From positions 60,786,247 through 60,850,246 of the forward strand of contig CM075765.1 of NCBI GenBank assembly GCA_037974665.1: a DNA stretch of 64,000 bases. The letters run 5' to 3'. Of this stretch, positions 4,837 to 60,176 are shown in pieces. The first letter of the stretch is position 1. The number at the start of each line of letters is the position of its first letter. The notes beneath the pieces are model-generated. The model ran no database searches. It worked only from the letters and a program-made list of their open reading frames with translations, and was not told the origin of the DNA. A program made the position numbers and the translations under genes. The stretch comes from Ehretia macrophylla. Lineage: Eukaryota > Streptophyta > Magnoliopsida > Boraginales > Ehretiaceae.

Positions 4837-7330
4837 TGTAACACCCCGATCCCTCACGAGACCGGAGGATCTAATAACCATGCTATTCTCAACCCAATAC
4901 CAAACCCGGTCACAAAATTTTAGGAGAAAAACGGACAGATTTTCCCCTGTACTATGGATATTCTGAAAACCTGTAAATTCTCAAATAAGGTAACTACAAG
5001 GTAAACAAACTTTTCATAGCTAAATATTTAAAGATTCACGGCCATCCGAGCCTTGAAGCAAACAATAGTTCCCAAAACCACACAAGCGTGCAAGTAACTT
5101 GTTTATAATATAGTCTAATAACCATGCCATTCTAGGATAACATTAAAACTTACTAAGAGATAAAACATTCTACACTAAGCCATTCACTCCCAAGCATGCA
5201 AAGCAACTAGAAATAGAAATATAAGTTATTACAAAGCCATAGAATTACCACTGCTACTACATTATCAGACTTCCAGCTTACATATTACTCAAATACATAC
5301 ATGAGCTTTAAGGCCCCAAAATAGATTATACATAGGACAACAAATTCTTCACATAACAACCAGAAAGCACATCCACCTCAGACAAATATCACACAGCAGC
5401 TAAGGAAACTCCACCACCTGTGCCACCTGAAACATGTTAACGAAGTATGAGCACCCACTGTTGCCCAGTGAGGGATATAGTCCCGGGGCGTGCAATGCAA
5501 CAGATAATACAGTTATACAACAATATCACTTAGACAATTTAAGAAGCAATGATAACATAAGTAACCACACATTTAAAAGGATACATTTCACACAATCCCC
5601 TATACACCAATCTTCACTGGTCTTAAATCACGATCCACGAACCACGAGCACGATCACGATAAGCCGGCATAACCCCAATCACTCCAGTGGGTGTACTCCG
5701 GATGTACCCCGAATCCTACGACCCAACATCCCCTGGCAATCTCTGGACTAGGCGAATGAGGGAATAGGGCACGGAGTTTGAATATCCACCGGCAAGCCCT
5801 CTGCCGCCCAGCCGATATTCAACACATCCGCCCCTGACACTATGGTTGCGCAACCACTATGCAATGCACTTAACAATGGCAAGTTAATAGCAATAATATA
5901 AGCATTAACACATAGGAGGATCAACAAAGTAGGTTGACCTCGATGCAATTAGAATAGAACAATTATATAAGCAAATATGCAATTTTACAAGGAGACATAT
6001 GCAAGTTAAGTATAGAATCACACCAAAAGCTTCAAAACAACTTGACACCACATATAACCACTTAAGGAGTCATGCCATGGGTTCAGAAGCGTGAGACAAC
6101 CGAAATTTTCCCTGACCCCCTTTGTTTTTCAAACTATTTCTCTTCCAAACCAAGGTTAATGATTCCATTTTCAAAGGAAACTCTCCCAACCCTCTAACTA
6201 ACCCTCAAGGTACCTTCTCAACCCTTTAACTCATTCAAATGCATGCGATTACGCTGAAAGCCCCAATTTCCCTCTTATGGCTTTAAACTACACCTACATT
6301 GTCCGGGCTTCAAACAAGGGATATCAAGGATTCTATAGCACCTAGGTAACTTAAGGATACTATAATTGAAGCCCGAATTTACCCGGATTCGCATTACCCT
6401 CGAAAGCCCCAAATTAAAGTCGACTATTTTACATTTTTAGTGATTTAAGGACAATGCAAGTGCACGGGGCTATTAGGTTACCTTCACTAGCACCTAAGAC
6501 ATCTATTAGAAGCATTGGGTCGAGCTAATTCGAGCAATTACGCAAAACCCTAGGAAAACGTCACTATTCACCCTAAAAATCAAACTAACGATTCTAACCG
6601 TTTAAATTGCGAAACGAAGGCTCAAATATGTTCTCTAGCATTCATATACATGGTATAATAGCATAGATAACAAATACAATGGCATTTGATCACATTTTCA
6701 ACAAATCAAGAAATTGACAACTATTTAGAAATGCAAAAACAAGCCGTGAAATCTCTCACCAATACGGGTAGGAGCACCTAGGAAGCTTGCAAACACCCTA
6801 CACTAGTTGCTCAAGGCTTGGCTTGGCTTGAATTGGAGAGTTGATGAAGAAAATTTTCCTCCCAAGTGCAAGAAGGGCTGTCGGGTTTCTGCCTGTTTTT
6901 TCAGTTTTTATTTTTTTTTTCTTTTGCATTTTATGAGCTTTAGTTGATATTTAAGGTGCATGGTTGGGTGGGGTCAAGTTTGGGTGTTTAAGTGGTCAAT
7001 TATAATGCGCATAGTAAGCTTAAAACAAGCCTAGAGTGAAACATGTGAGCTAGCTAATTAAATCTCTAAGTTAGTTACGTAACACTATTCATTAAACTAC
7101 AAAAATCATTTTCTAAATGAGCTCTCCTATCGCCTCTAGCTCAATTGCACATTTTTCCCACTACTTTAACAATTAATATGATTTAATAAAAATGTTAATT
7201 CACTAATAGAATGCAGTTTAAAAATGGGATGAATAGTGACTACATAAGATGGTTAACAAAGCACAGAAGGAAATATGCAAATAATGAATGCAACAGTAAG
7301 TCAATGTATGGCTAATTCTCGGGCGTCACA
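4837..7330 (-). repeat. Family C 3' LTR
   Basis: Near-identical to 8420-10911. It contains the complement of the CCTCACTGGG block (about 5451-5475) and a GC-rich block around 5640-5900 with GGGTCGTAGGATT and CCGGAGTAC on the minus strand, which is shared with family A LTRs. A short frame here (5748-5948, minus) recurs identically at 9330-9530 only because the LTR is duplicated. Confidence 0.9.
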
Positions 7331-8419
7331 TCCTCTCCCACTTAAACAAATTGCATCCACGCAATTCTTCTTCACAAGAGAACTCTGCATCAACTGGAAA
7401 CCAACTCCGATTATTCGTCATCAGTTGCTAAGCAAGAATACCATACACGAATTCTCGTGGGGAAGCTCATTAAGAAATCCCAGTTGTATTGTCTGCGAAC
7501 CTCACGTAATAAGGCCAAATAAAGTCTCCAATAGAGATGCTACTTCGAAATCCAAATAAGAATCCCGCTGGCACGAATACCATAGAAGAATAAAATCCCA
7601 ACTAAGAGCGGAGAGAAAATACCAATAAAAGTTCCGAGCAGGAGTATTGTAAATAATACCAGATAATAAGGCTAAAAAGAATCCCATATACCAATTCTTC
7701 TGAGAGATGCCGACAAAAGAATACCAAATGAATAGCTGATAAGAAAATACCAAGAATATGCTCCAGAGGACTGTCATATAGAAACCCCAAAAGAAGCTAC
7801 TCATTTATGACCGCTAAGCACTGAAAAAGGCCTTAGAAGAATCCCAATAACTGAGCTCCAACTATATCCACCAATTCCCAAATAAAGGCTGATTAATTGC
7901 CTCTCATTTCTGCTAATCAACATAATTTGGAAGGCCTGCCACTAATCACCTCTCTTCAGGGGAGGAAGGAGTTTTTCTTACCATTCGACGGGTTATGTAT
8001 GCATGCCAAACAATTGCATATGTATAATCATTCTTTAAACTATTACGCAAACATGTTAATAAAAGAGTTTGTGAAACAGTGTAATCATCAAAGTCATTCA
8101 AGCACGATAATCAAGTCAAGCATAACACAACTCAATCAAAGACATTCAAATACACACATTACAAGCAATAGTTCAAGCAATTAATAATTCACGAAGTCAA
8201 TTTGATGCATAACTAGCCACTTTACTTCACTTAGCACACATTTAGCACGTAACACATAATTATATCACATAGGTGCACACATTCAATACAAGACACACAA
8301 TCAAACATGCAGGCATACACTTTCAAGACACACGCTTAACAAGCACACACGCAAGGGTTACTACCCGACAGGCCGAAGACCCTGTCCCGGCTTAGAGCTA
8401 ACTAAGCTCTGATACCACC
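7331..8419 (-). repeat. Family C internal region, non-coding
   Basis: On the minus strand it runs from the primer site, through a degenerate repeat zone (about 8370-8000), to a T-rich zone with recurring TATTCTTTTGG-like words (about 7880-7500), and ends in a conserved pre-polypurine stretch (about 7365-7331). The segment around 7780-7900 matches family A internal DNA (for example 25680-25760), which shows that A and C are related. No protein domain is recognisable. Confidence 0.8.
8406..8417 (-). promoter_or_regulatory. Primer-binding site, initiator tRNA-Met type
   Basis: The minus strand reads TGGTATCAGAGC exactly, two bases after the end of the 5' LTR. Downstream on the minus strand follows a leader with AAGCCGGGACAGGGT that is shared with family A. 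Confidence 0.9.
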
Positions 8420-10911
8420 TGTAACGCCCCGATCCCTCACGAGACCGGAGGCTCTAATAACCATGCTATTCTCAACCCAATACCAAACCCGGTCACAAAA
8501 TTTTAGGGGAAAAACGGACAGAGTTTCCCCTGTACTATGGACATTCTGAAAACCTGTAAATTCTCAAATAAGGTAACTACAAGGTAAACAAACTTTTCAT
8601 GTCTAAATATTTAAAGATTCACGGCCATCCGAGCCTTAAAGCAAACAACAGTTCCAAAACCACACAAGCATGCAAGTACCTTGTTTATAATATAGTCTAA
8701 TAACCATGCCATTCTAGGATAACATTAAAACATACTTAGAGATAAAACGTTCTACACTAAGCCATTCACTCCCAAGCATGCAAAGCAACTAGAAATAAAA
8801 ATATAAGTTATTACAAAGCCATAAAATTACCAATGCTACTACATTATCAGACTTCCAGCTTACATATTACTCAAATACATACATGAGCTTTAAGGCCCCA
8901 AAATAGATTATACATAGGACAACAAATTCTTCACATAGCAACCAGAAAGCACATCCACCTCAGACAAATATCACATAGCAGCTAAGGCAACTCAACCAAC
9001 TGTGCCACCTGAAACATGTTAGCGAGGTATGAGCAACCACTGTTGCCCAGTGAGGGATATAGTCCCGGGGCGTGCAATGCAACAGATAATACAGTTATAC
9101 CATAATATCACTTAGACAATTTAAGAAGCAATGATAACATAAGTAACCACACATTTAAAAGGATACATTTCACACAATCCCCTATACACCAATCTTCACA
9201 GGTCTTCAATCACGATCCACGAACCACTAGCACGATCACGATAAGCCGGCATAATCCCAATCACTCCAGTGGGTGTACTCCGGATGTACCCCGAATCCTA
9301 CGACCCAACATCCCCTGGCAATCTCCGGACTAGGCGAATGAGGGAATAGGGCACGGAGTTTGAATATCCACCGGCAAGCCCTCTGCCGCCCAGCCGATAT
9401 TCAACACATCCGCCCCTGACACTATGGTTGCGCAACCACTATGCAATGCACTTAACAATGGCAAGTTAATAGCAATAATATAAGCATTAACACATAGGAG
9501 GATCAACAAAGTAGGTTGACCTCGATGCAATTAGGATAGAACTATTATATAAGCAAATATGCAATTTTACAAGGAGACATATGCAAGTTAAGTATAGAAT
9601 CACACCAAAAGCTTCAAAACAACTTGAAACCACATGTAAACACTTAAGGAGTCATGCCATGGGTTTAGAAGTGTGAGACAACCGAAATTGTACCTAAACC
9701 CCTTTGTTTTTCAAACTATTTCTCTTCCAAACCAAGGTTATTGATTCCATTTTCAAATGAAACTCTCCCAACCCTCTAACTAACCCTCAAGGTACCCTCT
9801 CAACCCTCTAACTCATTCAAATGTACGCGATTACCCTGAAAGCCCCAATTTCCCTCTTATGGCTTTAAACTACACCTACATTGTCCGGGCTTCAAACAAG
9901 GGATATCAAGGCTTCTAAGCACCTAGGTAACTTAAGGATACTAGAATTGAAGCCCGAATTTACCCGGATTCGCATTACCCTCGAAAGCCCCAAATTAAAG
10001 TCGACTATTTTACATTTTTAGCGATTTAAAGACAATGCAAGTGCACGGGGCTATTAGGTTACCTTCACTAGCACCTAAGACATCTATTAGAAGCATTGGA
10101 TCGAGCTAATTCGAGCAATTACGCAAAACCCTTGAAAAACATCACTATTCACCATAAAAATCAAACTAACGATTCTAACCGTTTAAATTGCGAAACGATG
10201 GCTCAAATATGTTCTCTAGCATTCATATACATGGTATAATAGCATAGATAACAAATACAATGGCATTGGATCACATTTTCAACAAATCAAGAAATTGACA
10301 ACTATTTAGAAATGCAAAAACAAGCCGTGAAATCCATCACCAATACGCGGAGGAGCACCTAGGAAGCTTGCAAACACCCTACACTAGTTGCTCAAGGCTT
10401 GGCTTGGCTTGAATTGGAGAGTTGATGAAGAAAATTTTTCTCCCAAGTGCAAGAAGGGCTGTCGGGTTTCTGCCTATTTTTTCAGCTTTTATTTTTTTTT
10501 TCTTTTGCATTTTATGAGCTTTAGTTGATATTTAAGGTGCATGGTTGGGTGGGGTCAAGTTTGGGTGTTTAAGTGGTCAATTATAATGCGCGTAGTAAGC
10601 TTAAAACGAGCCTAGAGTGAAACATGTGAGATAGCTAATTAAATCTCTAAGTTAGTTTCGTAATACTATTCATTGAACTATGAAAATCATTTTCTAAACG
10701 AGCGCTCCTATCGCTTCTAGTTCAATTGCACATTTTTTCCATTACTTTTACAATTAATATGATTTAATAAAAATTCTAATTAACTAATAGAATGAAGTTT
10801 AAAAATGGGATGAATAGTGACTACATAAGATGGTTAACAAAGCACAGAAGGAAATACGCAAATAATGAATGCAACAGTAAGTCAATGTATGGCTAATTCT
10901 CGGGCGTCACA
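8420..10911 (-). repeat. Family C 5' LTR
   Basis: Partner of 4837-7330, with the same ends and internal blocks (CCTCACTGGG complement at about 9040-9060). It ends at 10911 directly before the ATAAC duplication. Confidence 0.9.
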
Positions 10912-12053: not shown

Positions 12054-12056
12054 GGT

Positions 12057-12245: not shown

Positions 12246-12436
12246 GATGATTATGATTAGAGTAAGCACACATTATAAGAGTAGTCTAGTTTCTATTCAT
12301 AGTTCATCTTTTATGTTTCTTCCTTACCATACCATTCTTAATACTAGATATTATAGTACAGTAGAATGTTCACTTGTGCAGCTGTCTGCTGATATTGACT
12401 TATCTATAAAGATTTGACGGAGAATCTTAATTTAGT

Positions 12437-17919: not shown

Positions 17920-20541
17920 TGTAACACCCCGATCCCTCTCGAGACCGGAAGTTCTATCAATCAATCTAATCACAACCCAATTCCAAACGCGAGCAAAATT
18001 TTAGGGAAAGACGGACGGAGTCTCCCCTGTTTCTAGGCAAAATGTAAAACCTGTAATAGCATATAAGTGGACCAGCACCGTGTCCAACCATACAAACATC
18101 TCAAGGCCATCCGAGCCTTGGTTCTCAACAAGCGAACACAACCAAATAAACATTTCCAATTTAAAAGCTAACATATCTCTTTTCAACTTTGACAAGAACA
18201 TTCATGCTAGGCAATTAAACTACACTAACCCATTACATAAAATAGACTATCATACCATTCTAACTCTTTTCCTTCGGGCATTACAAACATACATTAAAGT
18301 TTAACTATTCTATCTGAATACATAAACTAGCTTTTCCAAATCACTTCAATAACCTAGAAAACTCATATTACATTCATTTTCAACATTAAATACAAACAAC
18401 ATATGAAACATACATCTTTGCATCTTTGACAACTCAAGCCACATAGCACGCAAGACAACTCTTCAAGCATGATCTTTCACATATCCTAGAACTTTCTAGC
18501 TAACATGGAATTTCCTGAAATGTGGTGGTGAGAAGTGAGTATACTCAACACGTATACTCAGTGAGGGCGAGACAGATATCGAGGTGGAGAGAAAGAAGAT
18601 CGTGCAATGCAAATAAGGCAGTTAAGCAATATATATCTGACAAGTAGGCATTCAATCTATCAATCAATACAATAAACAATTGATAAAGCATTAACACAAC
18701 CATTCAAAGCTATACCACACTTTGAAGGCTATGGTTCACTCAAACGAGCAATGTACCGATCATGATTTCGATGACTTTAACGATGACGCGCCGGCTCACC
18801 CACCTTATAACTTCCGTTAGAGTACTCCGGACATACTCTGTCAATTCTACGACCCAAAACTCCTTGGGCGGCAACCCAAGCGAGAAAGGGAATAGGACAC
18901 GGAGTTAGAGCAACCAACACTGGCAACCCGAGGCTACCCAGAGAGGCCCATCACTCACGTGCCTGACACTAATGCAATGCAACATGAGACATATAACGAT
19001 AATCGAGCAAGGCATTGAAGTGTAGGTCAGTAACAACATGCGATACAATAAGCATTTACTTTCAATGAAATAACAAGAAAAACACAAACAAGCATTATCA
19101 ACAATTGATATACAAATTCAGTCATAATCAACTTTAACAAGCATAACAAGCAATATTAAGCATTCTATAGGCATTACACTATGAAAACACACAAAATCAC
19201 AAAATGACCCCAACTTTCAAAACGCTACTACTTTCAAACGAGCCACGAGTTTTGGAAACCGACTTCACCAATCCTCCTAGGTCACCATAAGGCACGTCTA
19301 AAGACCCCGAAACCCTACTTAACCCTAGAATTCATGCAAAGCCCCGATTTTCCCCTTTACTCGTTTGAACTACCGCTACCCTAACCAAACACCTAACCAA
19401 TGCCATAACCACACCAAAAGTGCTTCCATGGCCTCCCGAGACAATGCCATCACGCAAAATGATAAAATGCCAAACTTGACCTAAACGACCCCAACTTTCA
19501 CTAAGCCATTTTCCTCCGTTTTTCCATTACACAATCCAATTAAACCACACATTTAGGCATTCTAGCATATCTAGTACCTTCCTACATCAACAGAACGCAT
19601 AACGGAGCAACTTCATCGAAATAAGGGTTTACTATTCATAATTTACTATTTAATTATCAATTTAAATTGCAATTTCGATATTCAACCACAAAAAATGTTA
19701 AAAAGCTATAAATACATGTTCTACAATTGCTAGGAAACATTCTTCAAGCATCAAAATGAATTAAATAACAATCTACGGCTAAAACCCAAAAATTAAAGTT
19801 TAATCACAATTATTTCAAATGCACAAATAACGATGAAACCCTCATCTTAGACACTCCTAGACGCTAGGAAAACCTGGTTGGTTGCCCCGGAACCCCCCTC
19901 GTGCAAGTTCACGCGAATATTTGAAGATTTAGCTTGAAAATCTTTTTTTTTCTCTCCTTGTATTTTCGGCCAGCCCTATTCTATTTTCAGCTTTCTTTTT
20001 TTTTATTTTGTGCTATAATGTGCTATTATAAAAGATGACACAAGTTCAATGGTCAAAGCCTTGGTCAAACCACTTAAAAATTGTTCAAATAAGCTTATTT
20101 TAGGCATTTTAAGGTTAAAATAACTAATAAAATTATATTTCTAATCAACAACATCTATAACAGTAAAATAAAAACACTAAACAGTAATCTTCACTATTTG
20201 CTGAGGACTAGAAATCATTTCCTAACTATCGCTCTCGATATGTTATGCACTTTGCGACAATAAAAGAATAACAATTAAACCTCAAAGAATTTAAGAAAAT
20301 ATAATTTTCGGAAAGTAACATAGTTCAAAATTTACTCTGGCTCAGAGCTACTTTTTGTTTAATTGAAAACCGAGCATTAAGATGCAAGAAAAATAAAACC
20401 GATTAACATAAATATGAAAATAAAGCTACAAATGAATGTTTAACTAAAAATAAACACAAAATTCAATGCTAACATTTAAGATAACACTTAATTAAATGCA
20501 ATTAAATGCCATTGAATGCATGTCGGGTTCGGGTTATCACA
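17920..20541 (-). repeat. Family A solo LTR
   Basis: On the minus strand it begins TGTGATAACCCGAACCCG and ends GGGATCGGGGTGTTACA, like the LTRs of A1. There is no partner LTR, primer site or internal region next to it, and mitochondrial-type DNA flanks both sides, so it is a solo LTR left by recombination between two LTRs. It contains the complement of the CCTCACTG block and its hairpin (about 18537-18570). At about 2.6 kb it has the full LTR length. Confidence 0.88.
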
Positions 20542-21552
20542 GGTTTTTTGTTTTAGTTTTTATAGATCCAACTTATGTATACATTCCACAATAGTACTTC
20601 ACTCGCAAACTTGTCCCGCCTTAAAACCACAAAAAATAACTATCGAAAGGATTACTCCGAGCCCTATAAATAGGGATACGACGTTCAAATTCTCTATAAA
20701 GATCAAGAAAATTTTCTTGTAGTTCCACTTCTTGCTCTAAAAATGAAGAAAGACTTGTCGACAATCGCCAGTTGGGTTAGTCCGACCAAGAAAGGCACGG
20801 GAGTCTTTGGGTATTGCTTGGGCCAAGTTAAGTAAAGACTGGCTACCTAGCAAGAAAACGGGTGCGCATTAGCGCGACAGCTTCTGCACCCATCGCTTGT
20901 TCCCTCACTGCACACTTTCTATATATCTGTTTCCATCCAACAAAAGACGTCCATACCATAGAGAATCAGGCTCGGCAAAAACGAGACTAGGGACCATGCT
21001 CCCCGCTTTCTTCCTATGCTTGATTCTCTGAGCCGGCCTGGATTTCCATGGCCTTGGAAAACTGGCCGAGATAGATGACAACATATTTTTCCCCTCTTCC
21101 AACGCGGGAGGGAAATCTTCTCTTATGGCCTTCACTTTCCGCCCGGCCCAAAAATAGAGAACCAAGCCCCCTTCTAAACTATTCATTTATGAAAGCAGGG
21201 AGGATCCAGAGCAAAGCCCCCTCATATTCAAGGCCGAGTGGCCTCTCCCCACAAGCACCCAACCTTCATTTTGCTCTTCCTTCGGGTTGCCTCCACAAAC
21301 ATGCGATCTAGGAGCCCTACTCTCCAACCAAAGGCACTACTTCAATTCAATCGCAAGCCCCCCTTCTATTGCATAACCTAAAAAAGCTATAAACAAAGTA
21401 CCAAAGTGGTTGCGGGCATGATACGCTTTGGTTACTGGCGAACGCTTCCAAAGGAGACCAGCTTTCAATACTAGTAGTTACTTTATGCTATTATTTTTTC
21501 AATATTATTGAATTGAATAGCATGGTCTGTAGCTAAGATAACTCAAGTGGGA

Positions 21553-22457: not shown

Positions 22458-22669
22458 TGTGAAACCCCAATTTTTGTCTTTACCTCGATTTGCGTGCCTT
22501 TGCCTCAATTTGCATGATTTGACCTGTTTATGTGTTATATGAGTTAGAATGTCCTAAATATGTGATTTATATTCCTAATACATGCTATGTGTGCATTCAT
22601 GAAATTTCCATAAAAAACGGCATCGAAAATTTTATCGTCTGTTTTTGTGAATAATGTTTTGAACACACG
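22458..22669 (+). repeat. Family B LTR1, first part
   Basis: Starts TGTGAAACCCC and matches 34622-34833 and 47485-47696. It is broken off at 22669 by A1 and resumes at 29420. Confidence 0.88.
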
Positions 22670-31333: not shown

Positions 31334-31341
31334 TATATAAG
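31334..31341 (+). promoter_or_regulatory. TATA-like box in family B LTR1
   Basis: TATATAAG between CCTCACTGGG (31318-31327) and GCTCACTCTC. Equivalent boxes are at 36745-36752 (LTR2) and 49570-49577 (LTR3). Conservation in all four family B LTRs supports it; start of transcription is not shown. Confidence 0.5.
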
Positions 31342-31371
31342 CTCACTCTCAATTATTGCATGCATACAGGT

Positions 31372-31461
31372 GATATTGATAAAGATTACGGGTACGTCCC
31401 TCAGGAAGTTGAGAATGTGCTTTATGTGAACAAGTCTTGTGTGCCGGAGTCGTTGCCATGA
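31372..31461 (+). other. Conserved 30-codon tail frame in family B LTR
   Basis: Just after an acceptor-like GCATACAGG, this frame reads acidic residues with KDYGYVPQE and ends SLP plus stop. Similar frames of the same length are at 36783-36872 and 49608-49697, and a related one on the minus strand ends at 3887. There is no start codon of its own. It may be a relic of a spliced exon or chance; differences between copies are mostly amino-acid changing, which argues against selection. Confidence 0.25.
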
Positions 31462-31834
31462 GCTTGTCTTAGTTGTTGTAATATGTTATATTGTATAACT
31501 TACTCAATTATAAGACTTATGTATATTGCTAGTTTAGTAGTTTTGTTTTGGAACATGATTAGGTTGCTGAATTGTTTATAATCTATTTTGGAAATGTATG
31601 TTATATAGTAAATGTATGATGATGGAACGGAGGCATATAACCTATGGATGCAATGGTAAAATAATGTTTAATGTATATTGTGGTTGTGTTGTTGAATTGT
31701 TGAATTGTAGAATTGTTTGTGGAGTTGGATGTATGAGTTACAAAGAAGTTGGTTTAGAGCCTTGGTATCCGGGTTACAGTCATTAACTGCCGAAATTCCG
31801 TTGCGTGCTGACTGATCTTAAGGGGGGTATTAAA

Positions 31835-31846
31835 TGGTATCAGAGC
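31835..31846 (+). promoter_or_regulatory. Primer-binding site, initiator tRNA-Met type
   Basis: TGGTATCAGAGC, exact, at the start of internal region 1. The corresponding site of internal region 2 is at 37255-37266. Confidence 0.88.
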
Positions 31847-31899
31847 GTATGTTTAGCTGTCAGCCGGGGTATTCTCAGAATGTGGGTAGTGGTCTAAGC

Positions 31900-39771: not shown

Positions 39772-39776
39772 GATAA
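39772..39776. repeat. Target-site duplication GATAA of A2
   Basis: GATAA on the left and again at 47211-47215 on the right, a perfect 5-bp match. The empty site is visible in internal region 1 near 34345-34355. Confidence 0.9.
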
Positions 39777-42603: not shown

Positions 42604-44380
42604 GGTGGTATCAGAGCTTGTCTAGCTCATAAGCTGGGACAGGGTCCTTGGTCTGGTGGGTAGTGACCCTTGAATGTGTGCTTGTTAAGTGTGTCTTGAA
42701 AGTGTATGCTTGTATGTGAGATTGTGTGTCTTGACTTGAATGTATGCACTTATGTGATATAGTTATGTGTTATGTGTTAAATGTTTCTCAAGAAAGGTGA
42801 AATGTCTAGTTGTCTATCGAATTGACTTATTGAATTGACCTCGTGAATCGAATCGACCTCGTGAATTGTTAGTTGCTTGAAGTATTGCTTGTAATGTGTG
42901 TATTGGAATGTCTTGAATTGGTTGTGCCGTGATTTGAATTGATTATGTTGTGCTTGAATTGATTGTCATGTTTGAATGACTTTGATGATTAAATGGTTTT
43001 GTGAACTCCTGTGTAAACTTGCTTGCATAATAGTTTAAGGCATGTGTATAAATGTGATATCCTGGCATTCATACATGTTCCGTGGAATTGGTAAGTAAGT
43101 CCTCTTTCTCCCCTAAAGAAGTGGTTCACAGCTGGCCTTCCAAGGTGTATTGATTGGCAGGAAATGAATGGCATTTGACTAGCCTTTATTTGGGAATTGG
43201 TGTTTGCCTTTGGAGCTCGGTTATTGGCAAATGTCTATGGTTCTCCTCTGTGCTTAACAGTTGCGAAATAGTAGCTTTCTCTCGGGGTTTTATTTGGTTA
43301 TTCTTTGGAGCATTCTTTGGTTTTCTTAATGGGTATTCTTTGGAGACTTCTATTGGAACTTCTTGGTAGACTTGGCTATTGGGTTTTCAGTCGGACTTAC
43401 TGCATGGTATTATCTATTGTATATGTGTCTCGGTCTTTATTGGACTGTTACTGGCATCCCTGATTGGAAATTCTTCAATGGTATTTTCTCGAATTCTCAG
43501 TGGCCAATTATTTAATATTTATTTATTAGACAAACTTGGCTACTTTCTTATTGGAGCATTGTTTCGGATATCTTCTTCAGTGTTCCTCAGTAGGTTTGGT
43601 ATTTGGAATTCCTATCAGACTTATTGTATAGTACTACTTATGGTATTCTTTGAAATTCTTATTGGGCGTTCTATTGGTATTTTCCTTATTGGCAAGGTTG
43701 TATGAAGTTCTCACTTGGCAAACAGTGAAGAGGCCTCAGAGTTTGGTTTCGGTATATTGTTCACCAGTTCGGTGTTTATCCTTGGAGTTTTCATCCATCT
43801 GGGAAACTATGTTTGTTATTCAACTTGGTTGTCTTATTGGGCACATTATATTTTCTCTACTATTTCCTTTGACATTCCTCTCAGCATTTGATAGCAAAAC
43901 TCGGAATCTAATTGGTTGTTCCATGGGATTATTATTTGGAAGGCTTCTTTGGAACTTTTGAAGTATATTTGATTGGGTTTCTTAGTATTTTCTTTAGCAC
44001 TCTTAACAGGGAATTCTTCTATGAAATTCATGACCAACGGGGTACTTCTTTGGACCTCTGGATGGAACCTTTGTTTGAGCTTTTATTTGGCTTCTTGCTT
44101 GGGAATTCTCGGGCAGTAATAGTTAGACTTCTATTGGAGATTCGTGCGTGGGGTATTCTTCTTGTCGTTATTGTGTGGTATTAATGACATCTACAGTATC
44201 TTTGCTTTAGTCTTTATTGGTATTATCTCGGCGCTCTTGGTTGGAATTTTATTCTTCTTCGATATTCGTGTCAACGAGATTCTTCAACCGATGAAGATTT
44301 GTCAGAATTGGATTTCAGATGGTGCTGAGTTCTATTGGAAGAAGAATTGCGAGGATGCAATTGTTTTAAGGGGGGAAGAA
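42604..44380 (+). repeat. A2 internal region, non-coding
   Basis: Same arrangement as in A1: primer site, CCGGGACAGGGT-type leader, TTGAATTGA repeats (about 42660-43000), T-rich TTCTTATTGG repeats (about 43190-44260), conserved GAATTGCGAGGATGCAATTG and purine tract. Long hydrophobic frames (43379-43705, 43650-43961, 43912-44184) overlap each other and are produced by the T-rich repeats. Confidence 0.82.
42606..42617 (+). promoter_or_regulatory. Primer-binding site, initiator tRNA-Met type
   Basis: TGGTATCAGAGC two bases after the A2 5' LTR, exact. Confidence 0.9.
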
Positions 44381-47210
44381 TGTGATAACCCAAACCTGGC
44401 ATGCATTTAATAGCACTTGATTGCATTTGATTAAATGTTTAATTAGTTAAACCAACCAATTTGCAATATTTTAATATTTCTCTTGGAAGCATTTAGTAGT
44501 TGTAAATTGAATAATTAAAGGATTATTATCTATTTCTAATAATTATAGTAATTGAATTTATTCTCTTGTGATTAATTAAGAGTCATCTTAAATGTTAGGG
44601 TTTAATTGTATTTGACTACGTGTTTATATTAACTTTCATTTGTAACTTAATATTAACTTCATAATTCTTTTAAATATTCTAGAAATAGTTAAATTAATTA
44701 TTTTAAATGAATATTGATTACCTTGATTGTTTTGATTATTTTAAAAATCAGTTTTGGTTGTTTTGCATTAAAATCACTCGGTTTTCAAATAAATAAATAA
44801 AGTAACTCCGAGCCGGAGTGAATTTTAAACTATTCTACTATTCTACTTTTCAAAGAATTAAAGTTTTATATTATTGCTCATCACTTTATTAGCGATCGAT
44901 TATTGACCGTTCGATCGTAGAATTTTGAAAATAAGAGTTAGAGAAATATTTTTCAGATTTAGTGAAAAATGTTTTTAGCTTAATTTAACTAGCTTTAGTT
45001 GTTTTTCATTTAATTGCATTGTTTTAACTTGAATTAGATTTAATGGCATCAAAATAAGCTGATTTGACTATTTTTAATTAAAGTTTGATTTTGCAAATGA
45101 CCAAAATGTCCTTCTCACCATTTAAATTAAAAACAAGGCAAAAATAACTCAAAACAAAACCAAAAATGACCCTTGTGTCCCCCCCTTGGCTGAATGGTTT
45201 TCAAGAGAAAAAAAATGAATTTTGCTTTCAATTTATTCTACAATCGTGCGTGGAACTGCTTGGGGGTCGTGGCTCGGGTCCTTGCGGGTCTTGGTCTTCA
45301 ATCTCTGTGAGGGTTTTCATGCTTTTGTGCATTTTAATATGAATTTGTTTTTTGAATCAATTTTTCAAATTTGATATTTATCGCGTTATAATGCCAGTTA
45401 TTGCTTGAAATAGCTTGCTTAGGGTTCGTAGAGCATTGCTTGTTAGTTATTTAGCAATTTTTACGGTCGAAACAACGTATTTGAAATTGGGAAAGAACAT
45501 GAATAGTGAATTATGAATAGTAAATCCTAGAATATCGGATTTCGATCCGAATTGCGATTGCTTGATTTGGATAGGTGTCATTAATGATAGAAAGCTAAAA
45601 TGTGAAATAAAAACAGATCGGCCTTTGTTAAAATTGGAAATTAGACAAAGAAACGTAAAGGGGCCGTTTGACCAAAAGTTGACCGTGCCCGAATTGAGTT
45701 GGGGGTTTCGCAATTGAGGGTATGGAAGCACTTTTGGCGCTGTTGTGGCATTGATTGAATGACTGGTTAGCATAGTTGTAGTTCAAACGCAGTAGGTGGA
45801 CTTTCGGGTCTCGGGTGAGAAAGTGAAGTTTAGTGACATAGAAACGTGTCTTGTAGTGCCTGAGTGAATGTAGTGAAATCGGTTTCCTAATCCCGTAGCT
45901 CGTTTGCTCGTAATTGTCTTTGGAAGTTAGGGATTGAATAGTGATATTTGTTGTTTTCGTGTTTGAACTGCTGTTACTTGTTTAATTGGTGTTATTGTTG
46001 CTTATTATTGCTTGTTATGCTTGAAAAGTTAGTTGAATGCTAGTATTGATTGTGATTGCTTGTTATCTCGTTTATTGTCACTAGTTTGTATTGTTGTGCT
46101 ATCGCACGTTTATTGCCTTGTATCGAGTCTTGCATTGCATAGTGTCCAGCGCGTGAGTGATGGGCCTTTCTGGGTAGCCTCGGGTTGCTAGTATTGGTTG
46201 CTCTAGCTCCGTAGCTATTCCCTCTTCTCGCTTGGGTTGCCTCCTAGGGAGACTTGGGTCGTAGATTGATGGATACTTCTGGGGGAGTCCAAACTGGTGT
46301 TATAAGGTGGTTGCGAGCTTATTCTCATCGTTGTCAACATCAAGCTCGAGATTGATGTATCGCTCGTGAAATGGTATATTACTCGTAAGAGCGAACCATA
46401 GCCTTCAGAGTGTGGTATAGCTTTGAATGGTTGTGTTAATACTTTCAGTAATTGCTTATTGTATTGATTGTTTGTCTCGATTGCTTACCTACCAGTTATA
46501 TTGCTTATCTGTCTTATTTGCATTGCACGACTTTCTTTCTCTCCAATTCGATATCTGTCTCGCCCTCACTGAGTATAGGTGTTGTGTATACTCACTCCTC
46601 ACCACCACATTTCTGGATATGCCTTGTTAGCTGAAAAGTTCGTGATTTCGTGAAAGTTCGTGTTTGAAGAGTTGTCTTGCGTGCTATGTGGCTTGAGTTG
46701 TCAAGGATGCAAGATGTATGCTTTTATGTATTGTATGTATTTATTGTTAAAAGAAATGTAATCTAAATTAGCTAAATAGTTGAGGTAAATTGAAAAGCTA
46801 GGTATGTAATCAGTTAGCATAGCTTAACTCCTATGCATGTTTGTAATGTCCCAAAGAAAAGAATTAGAATGACATGATAGATTATTTTATGCAGTAGCTT
46901 AGTATGGTTTAATTGTCTAGTTTGAATGTACTTGTCAAAAATGAAAAGAGATAGGTTAGCTTTTAAATTGGAAATGTATGTATACTTGCTGAGTTTAATT
47001 GTTGAGAACTGAGGCTCGGATGGCCTTGAGGTGTTTGTATGGTTGGACACGATGTTGGTCCACGTATATGCTGTAGCAGGTTTTACATTTCGCCTAGAAA
47101 CAGGGGAGACTCCGTCCGTTTTCCCTGAAAATTTATGCCCGGGTTTGGTTTGGGTTGTGATTAGATCGATTGATAGTACTCCCGGTCTCGAGAGGGATCG
47201 GGGTGTTACA
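44381..47210 (+). repeat. A2 3' LTR
   Basis: Partner of 39777-42603, nearly equal in length and close in sequence, with CCTCACTGAG near 46564. It ends GGGATCGGGGTGTTACA. Confidence 0.9.
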
Positions 47211-47484
47211 GATAAGTAGTGGTGTCATGCTAAGGCTTTGGAGTTGCGATTTCTTTCATATTCAATATGATATTAGGTGGGAGAGAATTATGAATTCAAG
47301 ATTGTCTTGGAATTATGATAATCATCTTGCGGTCAACAAAGTTTGTTCTTTGGAGGTCTTTGTTTAGGTGTCATCCTAAGAGATAAATGAGAACTAAGAG
47401 AAGTATTGTTAAGTGTAACGATTGAGGATTTAATTGTCTGTCAGTTCGAGAATTGCACGGACGCAATTGTTTTAAGGGGGAGAA
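47211..47484 (+). repeat. Family B internal region 2, last part
   Basis: Matches about 34351-34621, including the conserved stretch GAATTGCACGGACGCAATTG and the purine tract directly before LTR3. It completes internal region 2 after the A2 insertion. Confidence 0.87.
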
Positions 47485-50074
47485 TGTGAAAACTCAATTT
47501 TCGTCTTTACCTCGATTTGCGTGTCTTTTCTCAATTTGCGTGATTTGACCTGTTTATGTGCTATATGGGTTAGAATGTGCCAAATATGTAATTTATATTC
47601 CTAATACATGCTATGTGTGCATTCATGAAATTTTCATCAAAATCGGCATCAGAAATTTTATCGTCAGTTTTTGTGAATAGTATTTTGAACGATCGTCCGC
47701 TAAAATTTTTACACGGGTGTTTTAAACGTCTTAAAACCTAGTCCACTATTATTAATAAACCCATATTTGATAAAAATTGATTCTGAAACGGAATAGTAAT
47801 TTAAATAGACTTTTTGGGCGAAAAGTCTATTTTTTTAGCCAAATAGTGATATCTTCTAAACCCTATACTTGCATTGACTTTCGTTGACCTAGTATGTATT
47901 AATATAAATGTATTTATATGTGGTATTAAATGATTTTAGATTAATTGTGCATTCAAAAGACAATTGAAAACAAATAATATGACTTTTCACCTTCTTTTGC
48001 AAAAATTGAGTTTTTTAACCGAGTCGGGTGTAAGTCTATGCATGTGAAACTTGTTGTCAACTAAAAATATACTACTTAAAAATAGTCTAACTGTTAATTG
48101 CATTTGGGTGAGCAAAAATAGTCTAAAAATAATTAAAAGATTGAAAATACTAGTTAAAAGACTAAAAATACTAACTTTGACTTTGCAAATTTTGTTGACC
48201 ATGAGCTTATATCATCAACACACATTAAAAACAAAGAAAATACACTCACAAAACACACATATTATCGAAAATCCATGAGGGAGAAGAAAGAAGGCATTTT
48301 CAAGGTTTTTCAAAGGATTTTTCACATATATTTTGCAATTCAAGCCCAAATCACTTCATTCAAAGCTTGAATTCACTTTTTGGGCATCCATTCTACATCT
48401 TTCTTGTATCAAAACACATCAAAGGTGAGAGAAAAATTCTAGATCTCAAAATGTCATTTTTATGTTTTTGCATATACTTGAATTTTGAACCTGCTCAGTG
48501 TATGCTAAGGATCGTTTATATGTGTTTATATAAGATTTGAACTGTTGTAGCATGAATTTTTATTTTTCGGGTATTAAAATTGAGTTGTTGGCTATTTGTT
48601 AAATAATTGGAGTTATAGTGGTTGGAATCGATTGATGTTAGCTTGTAAAAGTTTGTTAAATACGTGGTAGTAATGTTGTAACGCCGAAATTTTGATTGTG
48701 ATGTCGGTGTGAAAGTTCGGAAATTTCAGCGTTGATGCATTAGAGTTTGAGGGTTGTTGGGCTCAATGTGGATGGTTTATGGTTAGTTTCCGATGGGGTG
48801 AATGTTGTTGATTGAGTGGGTGAGTGTTAGAAACTAGTTTGGAGGTTATCGGATTAGTAGAATGTAAGTTATGACTTTTAGAAGTTTGAGTTGTCTTTCT
48901 TTAAAATGTTGAATTATGCCTTTGGATGTTTGGGTGGTGTTTGAGTGATTAAATTGTGAGTTGTTGATGGTTAGATTAGGATTTGGTTGTGTGGTTATTG
49001 CATGTTAAGTTGGATGGCCGACTTTGTCATCTAACTTAGTTGTTTGTTGTTTATTTGATTAGTTGTTGTTATGTTGTTGAAATGATGATTATTGATTGAT
49101 TATTGATGAACCAGAAGATAGGCAACCTACTTTGTTGTCCTCCTGTGATAATTGATTATTGATGAGCCGGGAGATAGTCAACGTGAAAGGTTGTCCTCTT
49201 GAGTTATGAATGTTTATTATTATTGTCATGAGTCTTGATATGTGTGTGCCACCTCTCGGGCAGTATCGGTTTGGAAACGACATGACTATCATAGACTACC
49301 CCCAACTCGCATGGGCGGAGGTGCCATGGAGGGAGGGGCTAGAGAGGTACCTCGGGTGCGTGAGTAATGGGGAGTTATAAGAAGAACGGTTGAGATCGTG
49401 ATGGCGTTTGGAGCTACACCAACTAGAGTATCCTTTATTGATTGGTCATTATAATTAATGTGCTTATATTGTTATTGATGATTATTGTGTGTTTACAACT
49501 CAAAGGATGATTTCTAAAGAGTATAGTAAATACTGTTAGAGATCTATCGAATCCTCACTAGACTTGTTTTATATAAGCTCACTCTCAATTATTATATGCA
49601 TACATGTGATATTGATCAAGATTATGGGTACATGCCTCAGGAAGCTGAGAATGTGCTTTATGTGAACGAGTCTTGTGTGCTGGAGTCGTTGCCATGAGTT
49701 TGTCTTAGTTGTTGTAATATGTTATATTGTATAACTTACTCAATTATAGGACTTATGTATATTGCTAATTTAGTAGTTTTGTTTTAGAACATGATTAGGT
49801 TCCTGAATTGGTTATAATCTATTTTGGAAATGTATGTTATATAGTAAATGTATGATATTGGAACAGAGGCATATGACCTATGGATGCAATGATAAAAGAA
49901 TGTTTAATGTATATTGTGGTTGTGTTGTTTAATTGTTGAATTGTTTATGGAGTTGGATGTATGAGTTGCGAAAAGGTTGGTTTAAAGCCTCGGTATTCGG
50001 GTTACAGTCATTATACTGCCAAAATTCCGTTGCGTCCTGACTGATCTTAAGGGGGGTCGAGTTGGGCCGTGACA
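47485..50074 (+). repeat. Family B LTR3
   Basis: 2590 bases from TGTGAAAAC to GGGCCGTGACA, followed by the TACAA duplication. It has the same tandem duplication (49084-49205), GC-rich block (about 49245-49390) and CCTCACT/TATA block (49553-49610) as the other LTRs. Confidence 0.9.
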
Positions 50075-53388: not shown

Positions 53389-55860
53389 TGTGATACCCCA
53401 AACCTGGCATGTATTCAATAGCATTTAAAGTTCATTTAAATTGCATTTTATTGACCTTTCACCTTCTTTGACCAAACTAGTTGACTTTTCATCTACATTG
53501 ACCAACTACGACAATGTGGGAATTTTTGAAATGTTTAATAAAGGGCAAACTTGGGATTAGAAATAAAAAAAATGCAATGTTAAGTTAGTCAAATTTTGGG
53601 TCAGCTTTGGAGTTAAATCTGAACCAATTGGGGAAGATTTAGGTAGCAAATTATATATGGTTGGAAATCTCTATGAGTCTAGTTTCTGAGGCTTCAAACC
53701 GTTTGTGAATTGGAGTTTTCTAGAAGACGTTATGGCCATTTTCGTAAGGTCGCGCATAGCTGTTTTGGTTTAGCGGGTTGACCGAATTTTGACCTTTGAC
53801 TTCTTATCATTTTTGTTTCTAAATAAGCAGAATGCACACGAAAAAAAACAGAGAAAAAGGCTTGAAACCATGAGGAAAAGAAAGAGAAAAAGAAAGAAAA
53901 TCTCAACTTCAAATCTTCGATTCTTCGCGTGGGCTTGTGCGGGGTGGTTTCCAAGGCACTCTACGAGGTTTTCCTAGCGTCTAGGAGCATCTAAGGTGAG
54001 GGTTTCATCGTTATTTGCACATTTGAAATATTTGTATCTAAGCTTTGATTTTTGGATTTTATGCGTAGATTGTTGTTTTAATCGTTTTGTTGCTTAAAGA
54101 ATGTTCCTTGTTGATTGTAGAACATGTATTTATAGCTTTTTAACATTTTCTGTGATTAAATATTGGAATTGAAATATAAATTGTGTGATGAATAGTAAAT
54201 TATGAATAGTAAACCCTCGTTTCGATGAAGTTGCTCCGTTACGCGTTCTGTTGATGTAGGAAGATGCTAGATATGCTAGAATGCCTCAATGTGTGGTTTA
54301 ATTGGAATGTGTAATGGAAAAACGGAGAAAAACGGCTTAGTGCAAGTCGGGGTCGTTTAGATCGAGTTTGGCGTTTTCTCATTTTGCACGTTGGCATTGT
54401 TTCGGGAGGCCATGGAAGCACTTTTGGTACGATTATGGCATTGGTTGGGTGTTTGGTTGGTATAGTTGTAGTTCAAATGAGCAAAGGGGGAAATCGGGGC
54501 TTTGCGCGAATTCTAGGGTAAAGTAGTGTTTCGGGGTCCTTGGACGTGCCTTATGGTGACCTAGGAGGATTGGCGAAGTCGGTTTCCAGAACTCGGGGCA
54601 CGGTTGGAAAGGGTAGTGGTTTGATAGTTGGGGCCGATTTGTGATTTTGCTTGTTATCTTGATATTATGCCTATAGAATGCTTAGGGTTGCTTCATATAC
54701 TTGTTTAATTGGTGTTATTGTTGCTTATTATTGCTTGTTATGCTTGAAAAGTTAGTTGAATGCTAGTATTAATTGTGATTGCTTGTTATCTTGTTTGTTG
54801 TCACTAGTTTGTATTATTGTGCTATCGCTCGGTTATTGCCTTGGATCGAGTCTTGCATTGGATAGTGGCAGCAGGTGAGTGATGGGGCTGTCTGGGTAGC
54901 CTCGGGTTGCCAGTGGTGGTTGCTCTAGCTCCCTAGCGATTCCCTCTTCTCGCTTGGGTTGCCTCCCAGGGAGATTTGGGTCGTAGAATTGATGGATACT
55001 TCAGGGGTATTCCAAACTGGTGTTATAAGGTGATTGCGCGCTTATTGTCATCGTTGTCAACATCAAGCTCGAGATTGATGTATCGCTCGTGAAATGGTAC
55101 ATTGCTCGTATGAGTGAACCATAGCCTTCAAAGTGTGGTATAGCTTTGAATGGTTGTGTTAATACTTTCAGTAATTGCTTATTGTATTGATTATTTGTTT
55201 TGATTGCTTATTTATCAGTTATATTGCTTAACTGCCTTATTTGCATTGCACAACTTTCTTTCTCTCCAATTCGATATCTGTCTCGCCCTCACTGAGAATA
55301 CGTGTTGTGTATACTTACTCATCACCACCACATTTCAGGAACTGCCATGTTAGCTGGAAAGTTCATGATTCCGTGAAAGTCCGTGCTTGAAGAGTTGTCC
55401 TGCGTGCCTATGTGACTTGAGTTGTCAAAGTTGTAAAGTTGTATGCTTTTATGTATTATATGTATTTAATGTTAAAGTGGATGTAATTTAAGTTTCACTA
55501 GATTATGTATTTAGTTAATGTAGCTTAACTTCAATGTATATTTGTAATGACAAAGGAAAAGAGATAGAAATGTATGATAGTCTAGCTTATGATATAGGTT
55601 GGTGTAGTTTAATTGCTAAGCTTGAATGTATATTTACTTGTATTTTGCTTGTTGTGAACCAAGGCTCGGATGGCCTTGAGGTGGTTGAATGTTTGGACAT
55701 GGTATTGGTCCACTTATATGCTGTCGCAGGTTTTACTTTTCGCCTAGAAACAAGGGAGACTCCGTCCGTTTTCCCTGAAAATTTATGCCCGGGTTTGGTT
55801 TGGGTTGTGTTTAGATCGATTGATAGAACTCCCGGTCTCGAGAGGGATCGGGGTATTACA
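53389..55860 (+). repeat. A3 5' LTR
   Basis: Contains the donor-like GTCTAAGGTGAGG (about 53988-54001), a GC-rich block (about 54865-55020), CCCTCACTGAG near 55285 followed by TTTCAGG, and the LTR end at 55860. Its front 600 bases differ from A1 and A2. Confidence 0.9.
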
Positions 55861-57709: not shown

Positions 57710-60176
57710 TGTGATACCCCGAACCTGGCATGTATTCAATAGCATTTAAAGTTCATTTAAATTGCATTTTATTGACCTTTCACCTTCTTTGACCAAACAA
57801 GTTGACTTTTCATCTACATTGATCAACTAGGACAATGTGGGAATTTTTGAAATGTTTAATAAAGGGCAAACTTGGGATTAGAAATAAAAAAATGCAATGT
57901 TAAGTTAGTCAAATTTTGGGTCAACTTTGGAGTTAAATCTGAACCAATTGGGGAAGATTTAGGTAGCAAATTATATATGGTTGGAAAGCTCTATGAGTCT
58001 AGTTTCTGAGGCTTCAAACCGTTCATGAATTGGAGTTTTCTAGAAGAAGTTATGGCCATTTTCGTAAGGTCGCCATAGCTGTTTTGGTTTAGCAGGTTGA
58101 CCGAATTTTGACCTTTGACTTCTTATCATTTTTTTCTAAATAAGCAGAATGCACACGAAAAAAACAGAGAAAAAAAGGCTTGAAACCATGAGGAAAAGAA
58201 GGAGAAAAAAAAAAGAAAATCTCAACTTCAAATTTGCGATTCTTCGCGTGGGCTTGTGCGGGGTGGTTTCCGAGGCACTCTACGAGGTTTTCCTAGCGTC
58301 TAGGAGCGTCTAAGGTGAGGGTTTTATCGTTATTTGCGCATTTGAAATATTTGTATCTAAACTTTGATTTTTGGATTTTATGCGTAGATTGTTGTTTTAA
58401 TCGTTTTGTTGATTAAAGAATGTTCCTTGTTGATTGTAGAACATGTATTTATAGCTTTTTAACATTTTCTGTGGTTAAATATTGGAATTGAAATATAAAT
58501 TGTGTGATGAATAGTAAAATATGAATAGTAAACCCTTTTCGATGAAGCTGCTCCGTTACGCGTTCTGTTGATGTAGGAAGATGCTAGATATGCTAGAATG
58601 CCTAAATGTGTGGTTTAATTGGAATGTGTAATGGAAAAACGGAGAAAAATGGCTTAGTGAAAGTCAGGGTCGTTTAGGTTGAGTTTGGCGTTTTCTCGTT
58701 TTGCGTGTTTGCATTGTTTCGGGAGGCCATGGAAGCACTTTTCGTGCGATTATGGCATTGGTTGGGTGTTTGGTTGGTGTAGTTGTAGTTCAAACGAGCA
58801 AAGGAGGAAATCGGGGCTTTGTGCGAATTCTAGGGTAAAGTAGGGTTTCGGGGTCCTTGGACGTGCCTTATGGTGACCTAGGAGGATTGGCGAAATCGGT
58901 TTCCAGAACTCGTGGCTCGTTTGGAAATGATAGTGTTTTGATAGTTAGGGCCGATTTGTGATTTTGCTTGTTATTTTGATATTATGCCTATAGAATGCTT
59001 AGGGTTGCTTGATATACTTGTTTAATTGGTGTTATTGTTGCTTATTAATGCTTGTTATACTTGAAAAGTTAGTTGAATGCTAGTATTAATTGTGATTGCT
59101 TGTTATCTTGTTTGTTGTCACTAGTTTGTATTGTTGTGCTATCGCTCGTTTATTGCCTTGTATCGAGTCTTGCATTGCATAGTGTCAGCACGTGAGTGAT
59201 GGGCCTCTCTGGGTAGCGTCGGGTTGCCAGTGTTGGTTGCTCTAGCTCCGTAGCTATTCCCTCTTCTCGCTTGGGTTGCCTCACAGTGAGATTTGGGTCG
59301 TAGAATTGATGGATCCTTCCGGGGTATTCCAAACTGGTGTTATAAGGTGATTGCGCGCTTATTGTCATCGTTGTCAACATCAAGCTCGAGATTGATGTAT
59401 CGCTCGTGAAATGGTACATTGCTCGTATGAGTGAACCATAGCCTTCAAAGTGTGGTATAGCTTTGAATGGTTGTGTTAATGCTTTCAGTAGTTGCTTATT
59501 GTATTGATTATTTGTTTTGATTGCTTATTTATCAGTTATATTGCTTAACTGTCTTATTTGCATTGCACGACTTTCTTTCTCTCCAATTCGATATCTGTCT
59601 CGCCCTCACTGAGTATACGTGTTGTGTATACTTACTCCTCACCACCACATTTCAGGAAATGCCATGTTAGCTGGAAAGTTCGTGATTTCGTGAAAGTCCG
59701 TGCTTGAAGAGTTGTCCTGCGTGCCTATGTGACTTGAGTTGTCAAAGTTGTAAAGTTGTATGCTTTTATGTATTATATGTATTTAATGTTAAAGGGGATG
59801 TAATTTAAGTTTCACTAGATTATGTATTTAGTTAATGTAGCTTAACTTCAATGTATATTTGTAATGACAAAGGAAAAGAAATAGAAATGTATGATAGTCT
59901 AGCTTATGATATAGATTGGTGTAGTTTAATTGCTAAGCTTGAATGTATATTTACTTGTGTTTTGCTTGTTGTGAACCAAGGCTCGGATGGCCTTGAGGTG
60001 GTTGAATGTTTGGACATGGTATTGGTCCACTTATATGCTGTTGCAGGTTTTACTTTTCGCCTAGAAACAGGGCAGACTCTGTCCGTTTTCCCTGAAAATT
60101 TATGCCCGGGTTGGTTTGGGTTGTGTTTAGATCGATTGATAGAACTCCCGGTCTCGAGAGAGATCGGGGTATTACA
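57710..60176 (+). repeat. A3 3' LTR
   Basis: Partner of 53389-55860 with the same ordered blocks: GTCTAAGGTGAGG near 58310, GC-rich block about 59180-59340, CCCTCACTGAG near 59605. It ends in ATTACA at 60176, followed by TGTCT. Confidence 0.9.

What the first reader, a model, noticed from the sequence alone, without database searches (positions are those of the whole stretch)
4837..60176. Three LTR families share a common set of short cis blocks although most of their sequence differs
Seen in A, B and C: (1) GC-rich mid-LTR block with CCTCTC..GG.AG..TCGGG (31004-31190; 24085-24240; related block on the minus strand at 5640-5900); (2) CCTCACTG(A/G)G followed by a CTCACTC-like word (31318; 24474; about 5451-5475 minus); (3) leader after the primer site with AGCCGGG and a GGGTAGTG-type word (31835-31900; 25124-25185; 8417-8355 minus); (4) GGACGCAATTG-type stretch before the purine tract (34590; 26710; 7365-7331 minus). 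Inference: these are sequences that a shared helper needs for transcription, packaging, priming and plus-strand start, and the rest is free to drift.
Basis: partly seen in the sequence, partly recalled or inferred. Interest (0 to 1): 0.75.

Follow-up and report, generated by a model that had tools for sequence, protein, structure and literature searches.

The report
Shared RNA hairpin in plant retrotransposons
Several families of protein-less jumping genes in a plant genome have drifted far apart but still share a few short signals with a protein-coding relative, and one of these signals looks like an RNA hairpin whose two arms change together so that it stays folded.

Summary
Elements A, B/D/E and C are non-coding LTR insertions. 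A and B/C LTRs show no consistent overall similarity, yet match at the four blocks (60-93% ungapped identity in the core bins; background 27.7%). A coding Ty3/gypsy partner exists for A: gag in an open frame of up to 1641 codons; protease-RT and a chromodomain-like end were read at separate places. It shares A's LTR, leader and purine tract. Blocks 3 and 4 are familiar: primer site plus leader, and purine tract plus relic codons of the partner's C-terminus. Block 2 is the surprise: CCTCACTGRG opens a hairpin whose stem differs between families but stays paired (14 representatives: 96.4% of cells against 78.0% shuffled, 0/500). Hairpin word, CTCAY and TTCAGG together occur 25,075 times in the genome, reversed control 0. 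Block 1 may hold a second, weaker hairpin. The helper idea is thus partly supported: by shared sequence for A, not for B-E (0 of 41 B-type leader loci read show gag or protease-RT). What the hairpin does is inferred: an RNA-level signal, perhaps for packaging; a splice-acceptor role is the main rival.

The parts
22458..50074 (+). Family A composite element: LTR - internal - LTR - internal - LTR, interrupted by B and D
   Evidence: TACAA on both sides; repeats
22670..29419 (+). Element B, nested in the first LTR of A
   Evidence: TSD ACACG/GCACG, 4 of 5
39777..47210 (+). Element D (B group), nested in the second internal region of A
   Evidence: TSD GATAA/GATAA
53389..60176 (+). Element E (B group)
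   Evidence: TSD TGTCT/TGTCT
4837..10911 (-). Element C, nested in a minus-strand A-type element
   Evidence: TSD ATAAC/ATAAC
17920..20542 (-). Solo LTR of the B group (F)
   Evidence: TSD 4 of 5
31317..31369 (+). Block 2 hairpin, A first LTR
36728..36780 (+). Block 2 hairpin, A second LTR
49553..49605 (+). Block 2 hairpin, A third LTR (weak, E 0.2)
24473..24525 (+). Block 2 hairpin, B 5' LTR
28771..28823 (+). Block 2 hairpin, B 3' LTR
41959..42011 (+). Block 2 hairpin, D 5' LTR (weak, E 0.24)
46564..46616 (+). Block 2 hairpin, D 3' LTR
55287..55339 (+). Block 2 hairpin, E 5' LTR
59604..59656 (+). Block 2 hairpin, E 3' LTR
18514..18566 (-). Block 2 hairpin, solo LTR F
5426..5473 (-). Block 2 hairpin, C 3' LTR
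9008..9055 (-). Block 2 hairpin, C 5' LTR
3988..4039 (-). Block 2 hairpin, minus-strand A-type LTR
31004..31190 (+). Block 1, A
24101..24290 (+). Block 1, B 5' LTR
9215..9401 (-). Block 1, C 5' LTR
31835..31900 (+). Primer site and leader, A
25124..25185 (+). Primer site and leader, B
8355..8417 (-). Primer site and leader, C
34590..34621 (+). Relic C-terminal codons and purine tract, A
26710..26738 (+). Relic C-terminal codons and purine tract, B
7331..7365 (-). Relic C-terminal codons and purine tract, C

Best explanation
These are non-autonomous large LTR retrotransposons (LARD-like) of one clan with a coding, chromodomain-type Ty3/gypsy element. SHOWN by sequence: family A and the coding element share LTR, leader, primer site and purine tract; the families in the window and the coding element share short LTR ends, the primer site with its leader, the purine tract with relic C-terminal codons, and two LTR-internal blocks; block 2 is a hairpin with compensatory stems. 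INFERRED: proteins of the coding element replicate A, and perhaps B-E, in trans, so that selection keeps the contact points for RNA packaging, priming, plus-strand start and integration; the hairpin works in the element's own RNA, most likely as a structural signal read by the shared Gag/RT machinery (packaging or dimer formation).
For: Coding partner: L086 and L083 run from an A-like LTR end and leader into gag, L084 into protease-RT; 94 scored gag copies at 98-100% identity, over 50 of them with a listed open frame of 1641 aa; its LTR is 77% alike to A's over 2210 bases and holds blocks 1 and 2. Peaks at the blocks. Hairpin: 96.4% of cells paired against 78.0% shuffled, covariation score 0.571 against 0.236, both 0/500; slid partners 27-45%; stem positions 4-6 paired 41 of 42 against 25.2 expected (0/20,000), one row per distinct arm 20 of 21 against 12.3 (8/20,000); 25,075 strict matches, reversed control 0; found in 13 of 13 window LTRs that span the place, 2 of them weakly.
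Against: Function untested. One of five measures (pairs with a change on both sides, 4 against 3.5) is not above shuffles. Single sequences fold only slightly better than shuffles (z -0.85 to -1.81, six tested) and L071 is predicted to fold otherwise. Copies chosen for a purine at the fourth stem base (210) are mostly uncompensated, as expected of decaying copies. No coding member with a B-type leader in 41 loci read, so the helper of B-E is unknown. Transcript ends are unknown, so it is not shown that the hairpin lies in genomic RNA.
Confidence: 0.6

Rival explanations
1. The hairpin belongs to RNA processing by the host: a regulated 3' splice site (branch-point-like YTNAY word, then TTTCAG|G) with the hairpin controlling its use, so that some full-length RNA is kept.
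For: 34 of 38 distinct hairpins in window and loci have YAGG within 32 bases downstream, against 13.8% of random LTR pieces (most of the 38 are related B-type copies); words such as CTAAC or CTAAT stand before it in several families (consensus recalled).
Against: No 5' splice site shared by the families was seen by eye around block 1 (not tested further); non-coding families have no protein to express and yet keep it; the branch-like word lies very near the AG.
Confidence: 0.25
2. B, D, E and C have, or had, their own coding family, which was not found; the common blocks are older inheritance and no helper is shared between A and B-E now.
For: B/D/E and C are closer to each other than to A; only A has a close coding relative here.
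Against: Of 58 B-type leaders in the first 20.27 Mb of contig 1, 39 are followed by the purine-tract word at 1.2-2.3 kb (too short to code) and 11 of the other 19 were read and are non-coding; 8 were not read.
Confidence: 0.4
3. The inverted repeat acts as DNA (a palindromic protein site).
For: B's arms contain the palindrome GTATAC.
Against: Arm sequence differs between families while pairing is kept. At stem positions 1-6 of 14 representatives there are 8 G.U pairs on the sense strand, no A.C and one other mismatch; but six of the eight are at position 2, where the search word allowed only A or G, so this strand argument is modest.
Confidence: 0.08

Closest known systems
Dasheng/RIRE2, Spip/RIRE3, Squiq/RIRE8 (rice LARDs and their coding counterparts; PMC1940013 passages)
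   Same: Non-coding LTR elements with a coding counterpart that shares their LTR.
   Different: There the LTRs of a couple are highly identical; here A and its partner are 77% alike, and A against B-E only at short blocks. No hairpin is mentioned in the passages seen.
RLG_Cereba/RLG_Quinta of einkorn wheat (PMC11302176, abstract and passages)
   Same: Pair proposed from shared LTR ends, primer site, purine tract and the 3' half of the LTR.
   Different: Quinta still codes for GAG; the passages seen name TATA box and poly-A signal, not a covarying hairpin.
Chromoviruses of Beta vulgaris (PMC3605345, abstract and passages)
   Same: Initiator-Met primer site, gag-pol in one frame, in some families frame entering the 3' LTR, chromodomain before the purine tract.
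   Different: Non-coding derivatives and LTR hairpins do not appear in the passages seen.
LTR modules of Benachenhou et al. 2013 (PMC3601003, passages)
   Same: Short inverted LTR ends and a few motifs conserved in otherwise variable LTRs.
   Different: Plant Metaviridae were not modelled there; modules named are TATA, AATAAA, GT-rich stretch and LTR ends.

Membership tests
LARD (large non-autonomous LTR retrotransposon; definition recalled) | Long LTRs, primer site and purine tract, TSDs | tested here: met
   LTRs 2.45-2.83 kb, TGGTATCAGAGC, purine tract, TSDs
LARD (large non-autonomous LTR retrotransposon; definition recalled) | No coding capacity | tested here: met
   No ORF of 150 aa with a common start codon in the window; partner gag and protease-RT match nothing in it; integrase not tested
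LARD (large non-autonomous LTR retrotransposon; definition recalled) | Mobilised in trans by a coding partner | not testable with these tools
   Only sequence sharing shown, for A
Chromovirus, Tekay/Del lineage (the coding partner) | gag, protease, RT and chromodomain in a Ty3/gypsy element | tested here: inconclusive
   Gag at L086, protease-RT at another copy, L084; Chromo 0.00061 at the L086 copy, 20.1 bits against a cut-off of 25.1; integrase not read
Chromovirus, Tekay/Del lineage (the coding partner) | Placement in the lineage by an RT tree | not tested
   No reference lineages at hand; the lineage name rests on LTR length and recall
Retrozyme (hammerhead-bearing retroelement) | Hammerhead ribozyme in the LTR | tested here: not met
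   No Rfam match over 22400-32000, which holds B and part of A; other elements not scanned
TRIM (miniature element) | Very short LTRs and element (criterion recalled) | tested here: not met
   LTRs of 2.45 kb and more

The most novel reading that the evidence does not exclude
The covarying hairpin is an RNA identity tag recognised in trans: the proteins of one coding family recognise the fold with its flanks CCTCAC and TTTCAGG, not the stem sequence, and this is what lets many protein-less families, otherwise unalike, be packaged by the same helper; it would be a first defined packaging or identity signal for a plant Ty3/gypsy clan.
Probability: 0.28. Interest if true: 0.78.

Novelty: new variant of a known kind. 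Interest (0 to 1): 0.55.

Why it matters
Which RNA signals let coding plant retrotransposons mobilise non-coding ones is little known; in the papers seen, pairs are argued from LTR similarity, primer site and purine tract. A short hairpin with compensatory changes, with some 25,000 strict matches in one genome and present in the coding member too, is a concrete candidate that can be tested, and a motif to group LTR families that have no coding region.

Tried and rejected
Pairwise local alignment of A/partner against B, D, E, C LTRs: of 9 comparisons, 6 gave nothing above the 5% level of shuffles and 3 one short hit each just above it (P-D5 and P-E3 at the same AT-rich place of P; A2-C). A first, permissive scoring gave long alignments for shuffles too, so its A-B and A-C values of 62-66% were not used. 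TATA-box reading of block 2: TATATAA lies in the stem of A and the partner but not in B or C. RT and chromodomain top hits as partner: the elements at L069/L070 and L071/L072 have 357-bp and 956-bp LTRs of another kind, though block-2 hairpins lie in their surroundings; of ten stretches next to chromodomain hits (L073-L082), only L077 matched the window, through an A-type LTR beside it. The leader pattern was misdesigned: it missed B, D and E and caught mainly the partner/A leader (99 of 100 listed rows). Block 1 as hairpin: 90.1% paired against 85.5% shuffled, mostly wobble changes, structure taken from the same alignment, and one pair mistyped in my bracket string (60-204 for 60-101): suggestive only. 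Leader: the consensus fold has no pair changed on both sides: no support for structure. Hammerhead: no Rfam match over 22400-32000.

Paper searches (one search was an input error) listed no report of the hairpin; I saw listings, and passages of four papers. The library holds open-licence papers only, so this is not proof of absence.
Full report
WHAT IS THERE. The window lies in an unnamed 1.58-Gb assembly. It is a plant, judged by the primer site and by a mitochondrial nad7 fragment whose best solved relatives are labelled NDUS2 or Nad7 (that these are plant entries is recalled). Self-comparison and boundary reading give nested LTR elements: A, 22458-50074, with three LTRs and two internal regions inside one TSD (TACAA); B, 22670-29419, in A's first LTR; D, 39777-47210, in A's second internal region; E, 53389-60176; C, 4837-10911 minus, inside a minus-strand A-type element; and a solo LTR, 17920-20542 minus. 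TSDs are perfect for A, C, D and E and 4 of 5 for B and the solo LTR. Primer sites read TGGTATCAGAGC, complementary to initiator tRNA-Met (recalled), with one base changed in two A-type copies. No ORF of 150 aa with a common start codon exists in the window, and gag or protease-RT of the coding partner matches nothing in it.

HOW ALIKE THE FAMILIES ARE. B, D and E are one group (LTRs 75-78% alike over their length, internal regions 81-91%). C shares with them the last 109-138 bases of the LTR at 77-80%, 680-730 bases of leader at 72-75% and about 100 bases before the 3' LTR. A and the partner against B, D, E and C gave nothing, or one short hit just above shuffles, in local alignment. Anchored on the blocks and without gaps, A and partner against B, E and C give 67-70% over 20 bases at block 1, 93% over 10 at the 5' arm of block 2 and 60 then 45% at its 3' arm, 70% at the primer site, 62-87% from -40 to +10 of the 3' LTR start and 67% in the last 10 bases of the LTR; background mean 27.7%, 99.9th percentile 46.7%; one other bin within 150 bases reached 52%. 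Places further than 150 bases from a block were not tested in this way.

THE CODING PARTNER. A leader pattern led to five fetched loci. One (L087) is B-type and non-coding. Of the four A-type, L086 and L083 continue into gag (L083 79.6% identical to L086), L084 runs from the leader straight into protease-RT, and L085 is family A itself. Pfam: Retrotrans_gag 1.1e-19 and zf-CCHC for L086; RVP_2 1.8e-26 and RVT_1 5.5e-34 for L084. A genome search with this gag scored 94 copies, 98-100% identical, over 50 with a listed open frame of 1641 aa, some of these with a stop inside the match. At the L086 copy the frame passes a chromodomain-like stretch (Chromo 0.00061, below the curated cut-off), then the purine tract, and stops about 96 bases inside the 3' LTR. 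Its two LTRs are 99.6% identical over the 1123 bases compared. Its LTR is 77% alike to A's over 2210 bases and carries blocks 1 and 2. Integrase was not read.

WHERE THE HELPER IDEA STOPS. A B-type leader pattern has 2,173 matches, reversed control 0. Of the 58 in the first 20.27 Mb of contig 1, 39 are followed by the purine-tract word at 1.2-2.3 kb, one at 6.0 kb, and 18 have none near. Eleven of these 19 were read (L087, L090-L099): none shows gag or protease-RT; 8 were not read. Thirty further loci (L039-L068, the first being the window's own copy), chosen as its nearest relatives and so biased, also show none: 0 of 41. A helper is indicated by sequence for A only.

BLOCK 4 is the end of the coding frame. 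Read in the partner's frame, the bases before the 3' LTR give NFEDEISIRGGECETP (partner), ENCADAIVLRRGECETP (A), KNCEDAIVLRGEECDNP (D), KNYEDAIVLRGGGCDTP (E) and KNCVDAICLSGRGCD (C); B and the third A copy are in another frame. The non-coding families thus look like coding elements that kept the leader and about the last dozen codons with the purine tract.

BLOCK 2 is a hairpin. CCTCAC is followed by TGRG-arm-loop-arm-CTCA. Arms after RG are CTTAT/ATAAG (partner), TATAC/GTATA (B), CAAC/GTTG (C), CAAT/ATTG (L006), TAAC/GTTA and TATA/TATA (two contig-1 families), TT/AA and TTT/AAA (L071 and kin), TTC/GGA. On 14 representatives, 8 from window and loci and 6 from printed pattern matches, 96.4% of cells are paired against 78.0% in shuffles and the covariation score is 0.571 against 0.236 (0 of 500 for both); the number of pairs with a change on both sides (4 against 3.5) is not above shuffles; sliding the partner by 1-3 bases gives 27-45%. 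At stem positions 4-6, whose pairing no pattern fixed, 41 of 42 are paired against 25.2 expected (0 of 20,000); with one row per distinct arm 20 of 21 against 12.3 (8 of 20,000). At positions 1-6 there are 75 Watson-Crick pairs, 8 G.U, no A.C and 1 other, which suggests RNA of the element's own polarity; six of the G.U are at position 2, where the word allowed only A or G, so this is modest evidence. A covariance model finds the hairpin in 13 of 13 window LTRs that span the place, three of them training members, two only weakly (E 0.20, 0.24) (window and 45 of 99 loci searched). Genome-wide, hairpin word, CTCAY and TTCAGG in order count 25,075, reversed control 0. Against: six single sequences fold only slightly better than shuffles (z -0.85 to -1.81) and L071 is predicted to fold otherwise; copies with a purine at the fourth stem base (210) are mostly uncompensated, as expected of decaying copies; by eye at least two of the 100 listed are compensated (C3:48079988, C9:81697540).

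BLOCK 1 holds GGGYRGC and a pairing arm, 90.1% paired against 85.5% shuffled, mostly by wobble changes: a possible second hairpin. The leader (block 3) has no pair changed on both sides: conserved sequence, no evidence of structure.

MECHANISM. Shown: shared termini, primer site, leader, purine tract and a covarying hairpin in coding and non-coding members. Inferred: trans-replication of A by the coding family's proteins; the same, less surely, for B-E; the hairpin as a structural signal in genomic RNA. The chief rival is RNA processing: 34 of 38 distinct hairpins, mostly related B-type copies, have YAGG within 32 bases downstream, against 13.8% of random pieces, often after a branch-point-like word. 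Which is right needs RNA data.

KNOWN AND NEW. Non-coding and coding pairs sharing LTRs are known (Dasheng/RIRE2 and others, PMC1940013 passages; Cereba/Quinta, PMC11302176 abstract and passages). Frames entering the 3' LTR and initiator-Met primer sites are known in Beta chromoviruses (PMC3605345 abstract and passages). The LTR modules in the passages of PMC3601003 do not include this hairpin, Rfam has no match over 22400-32000, and six paper searches listed no report of it. I therefore rate the elements as ordinary and the hairpin as a new variant of a known kind of cis-signal.

Noticed in passing
22458-50074: Element A is a composite LTR-internal-LTR-internal-LTR array inside a single TACAA duplication, as recombination between copies would give.
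   Followed up: partly
50824-51111: Open fragment of mitochondrial nad7 (Complex1_49kDa 1.2e-24; best solved chains NDUS2 or Nad7): a piece of mitochondrial DNA in the nuclear window.
   Followed up: partly
L089:279-375: The coding partner's frame runs through the purine tract and about 96 bases into the 3' LTR.
   Followed up: partly
L084:302-1552: A copy whose leader runs straight into protease-RT without gag: an internal deletion of the coding family.
   Followed up: no
G000 contig 1, about 0.61-0.77 Mb and 1.90-2.05 Mb: The same spacing of leader, hairpin and purine-tract hits recurs, partly inverted, in the lists: probably large duplicated blocks.
   Followed up: no
12431-13290: Two overlapping stop-free stretches of 142 and 157 codons outside the retroelements, no Pfam match.
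   Followed up: partly
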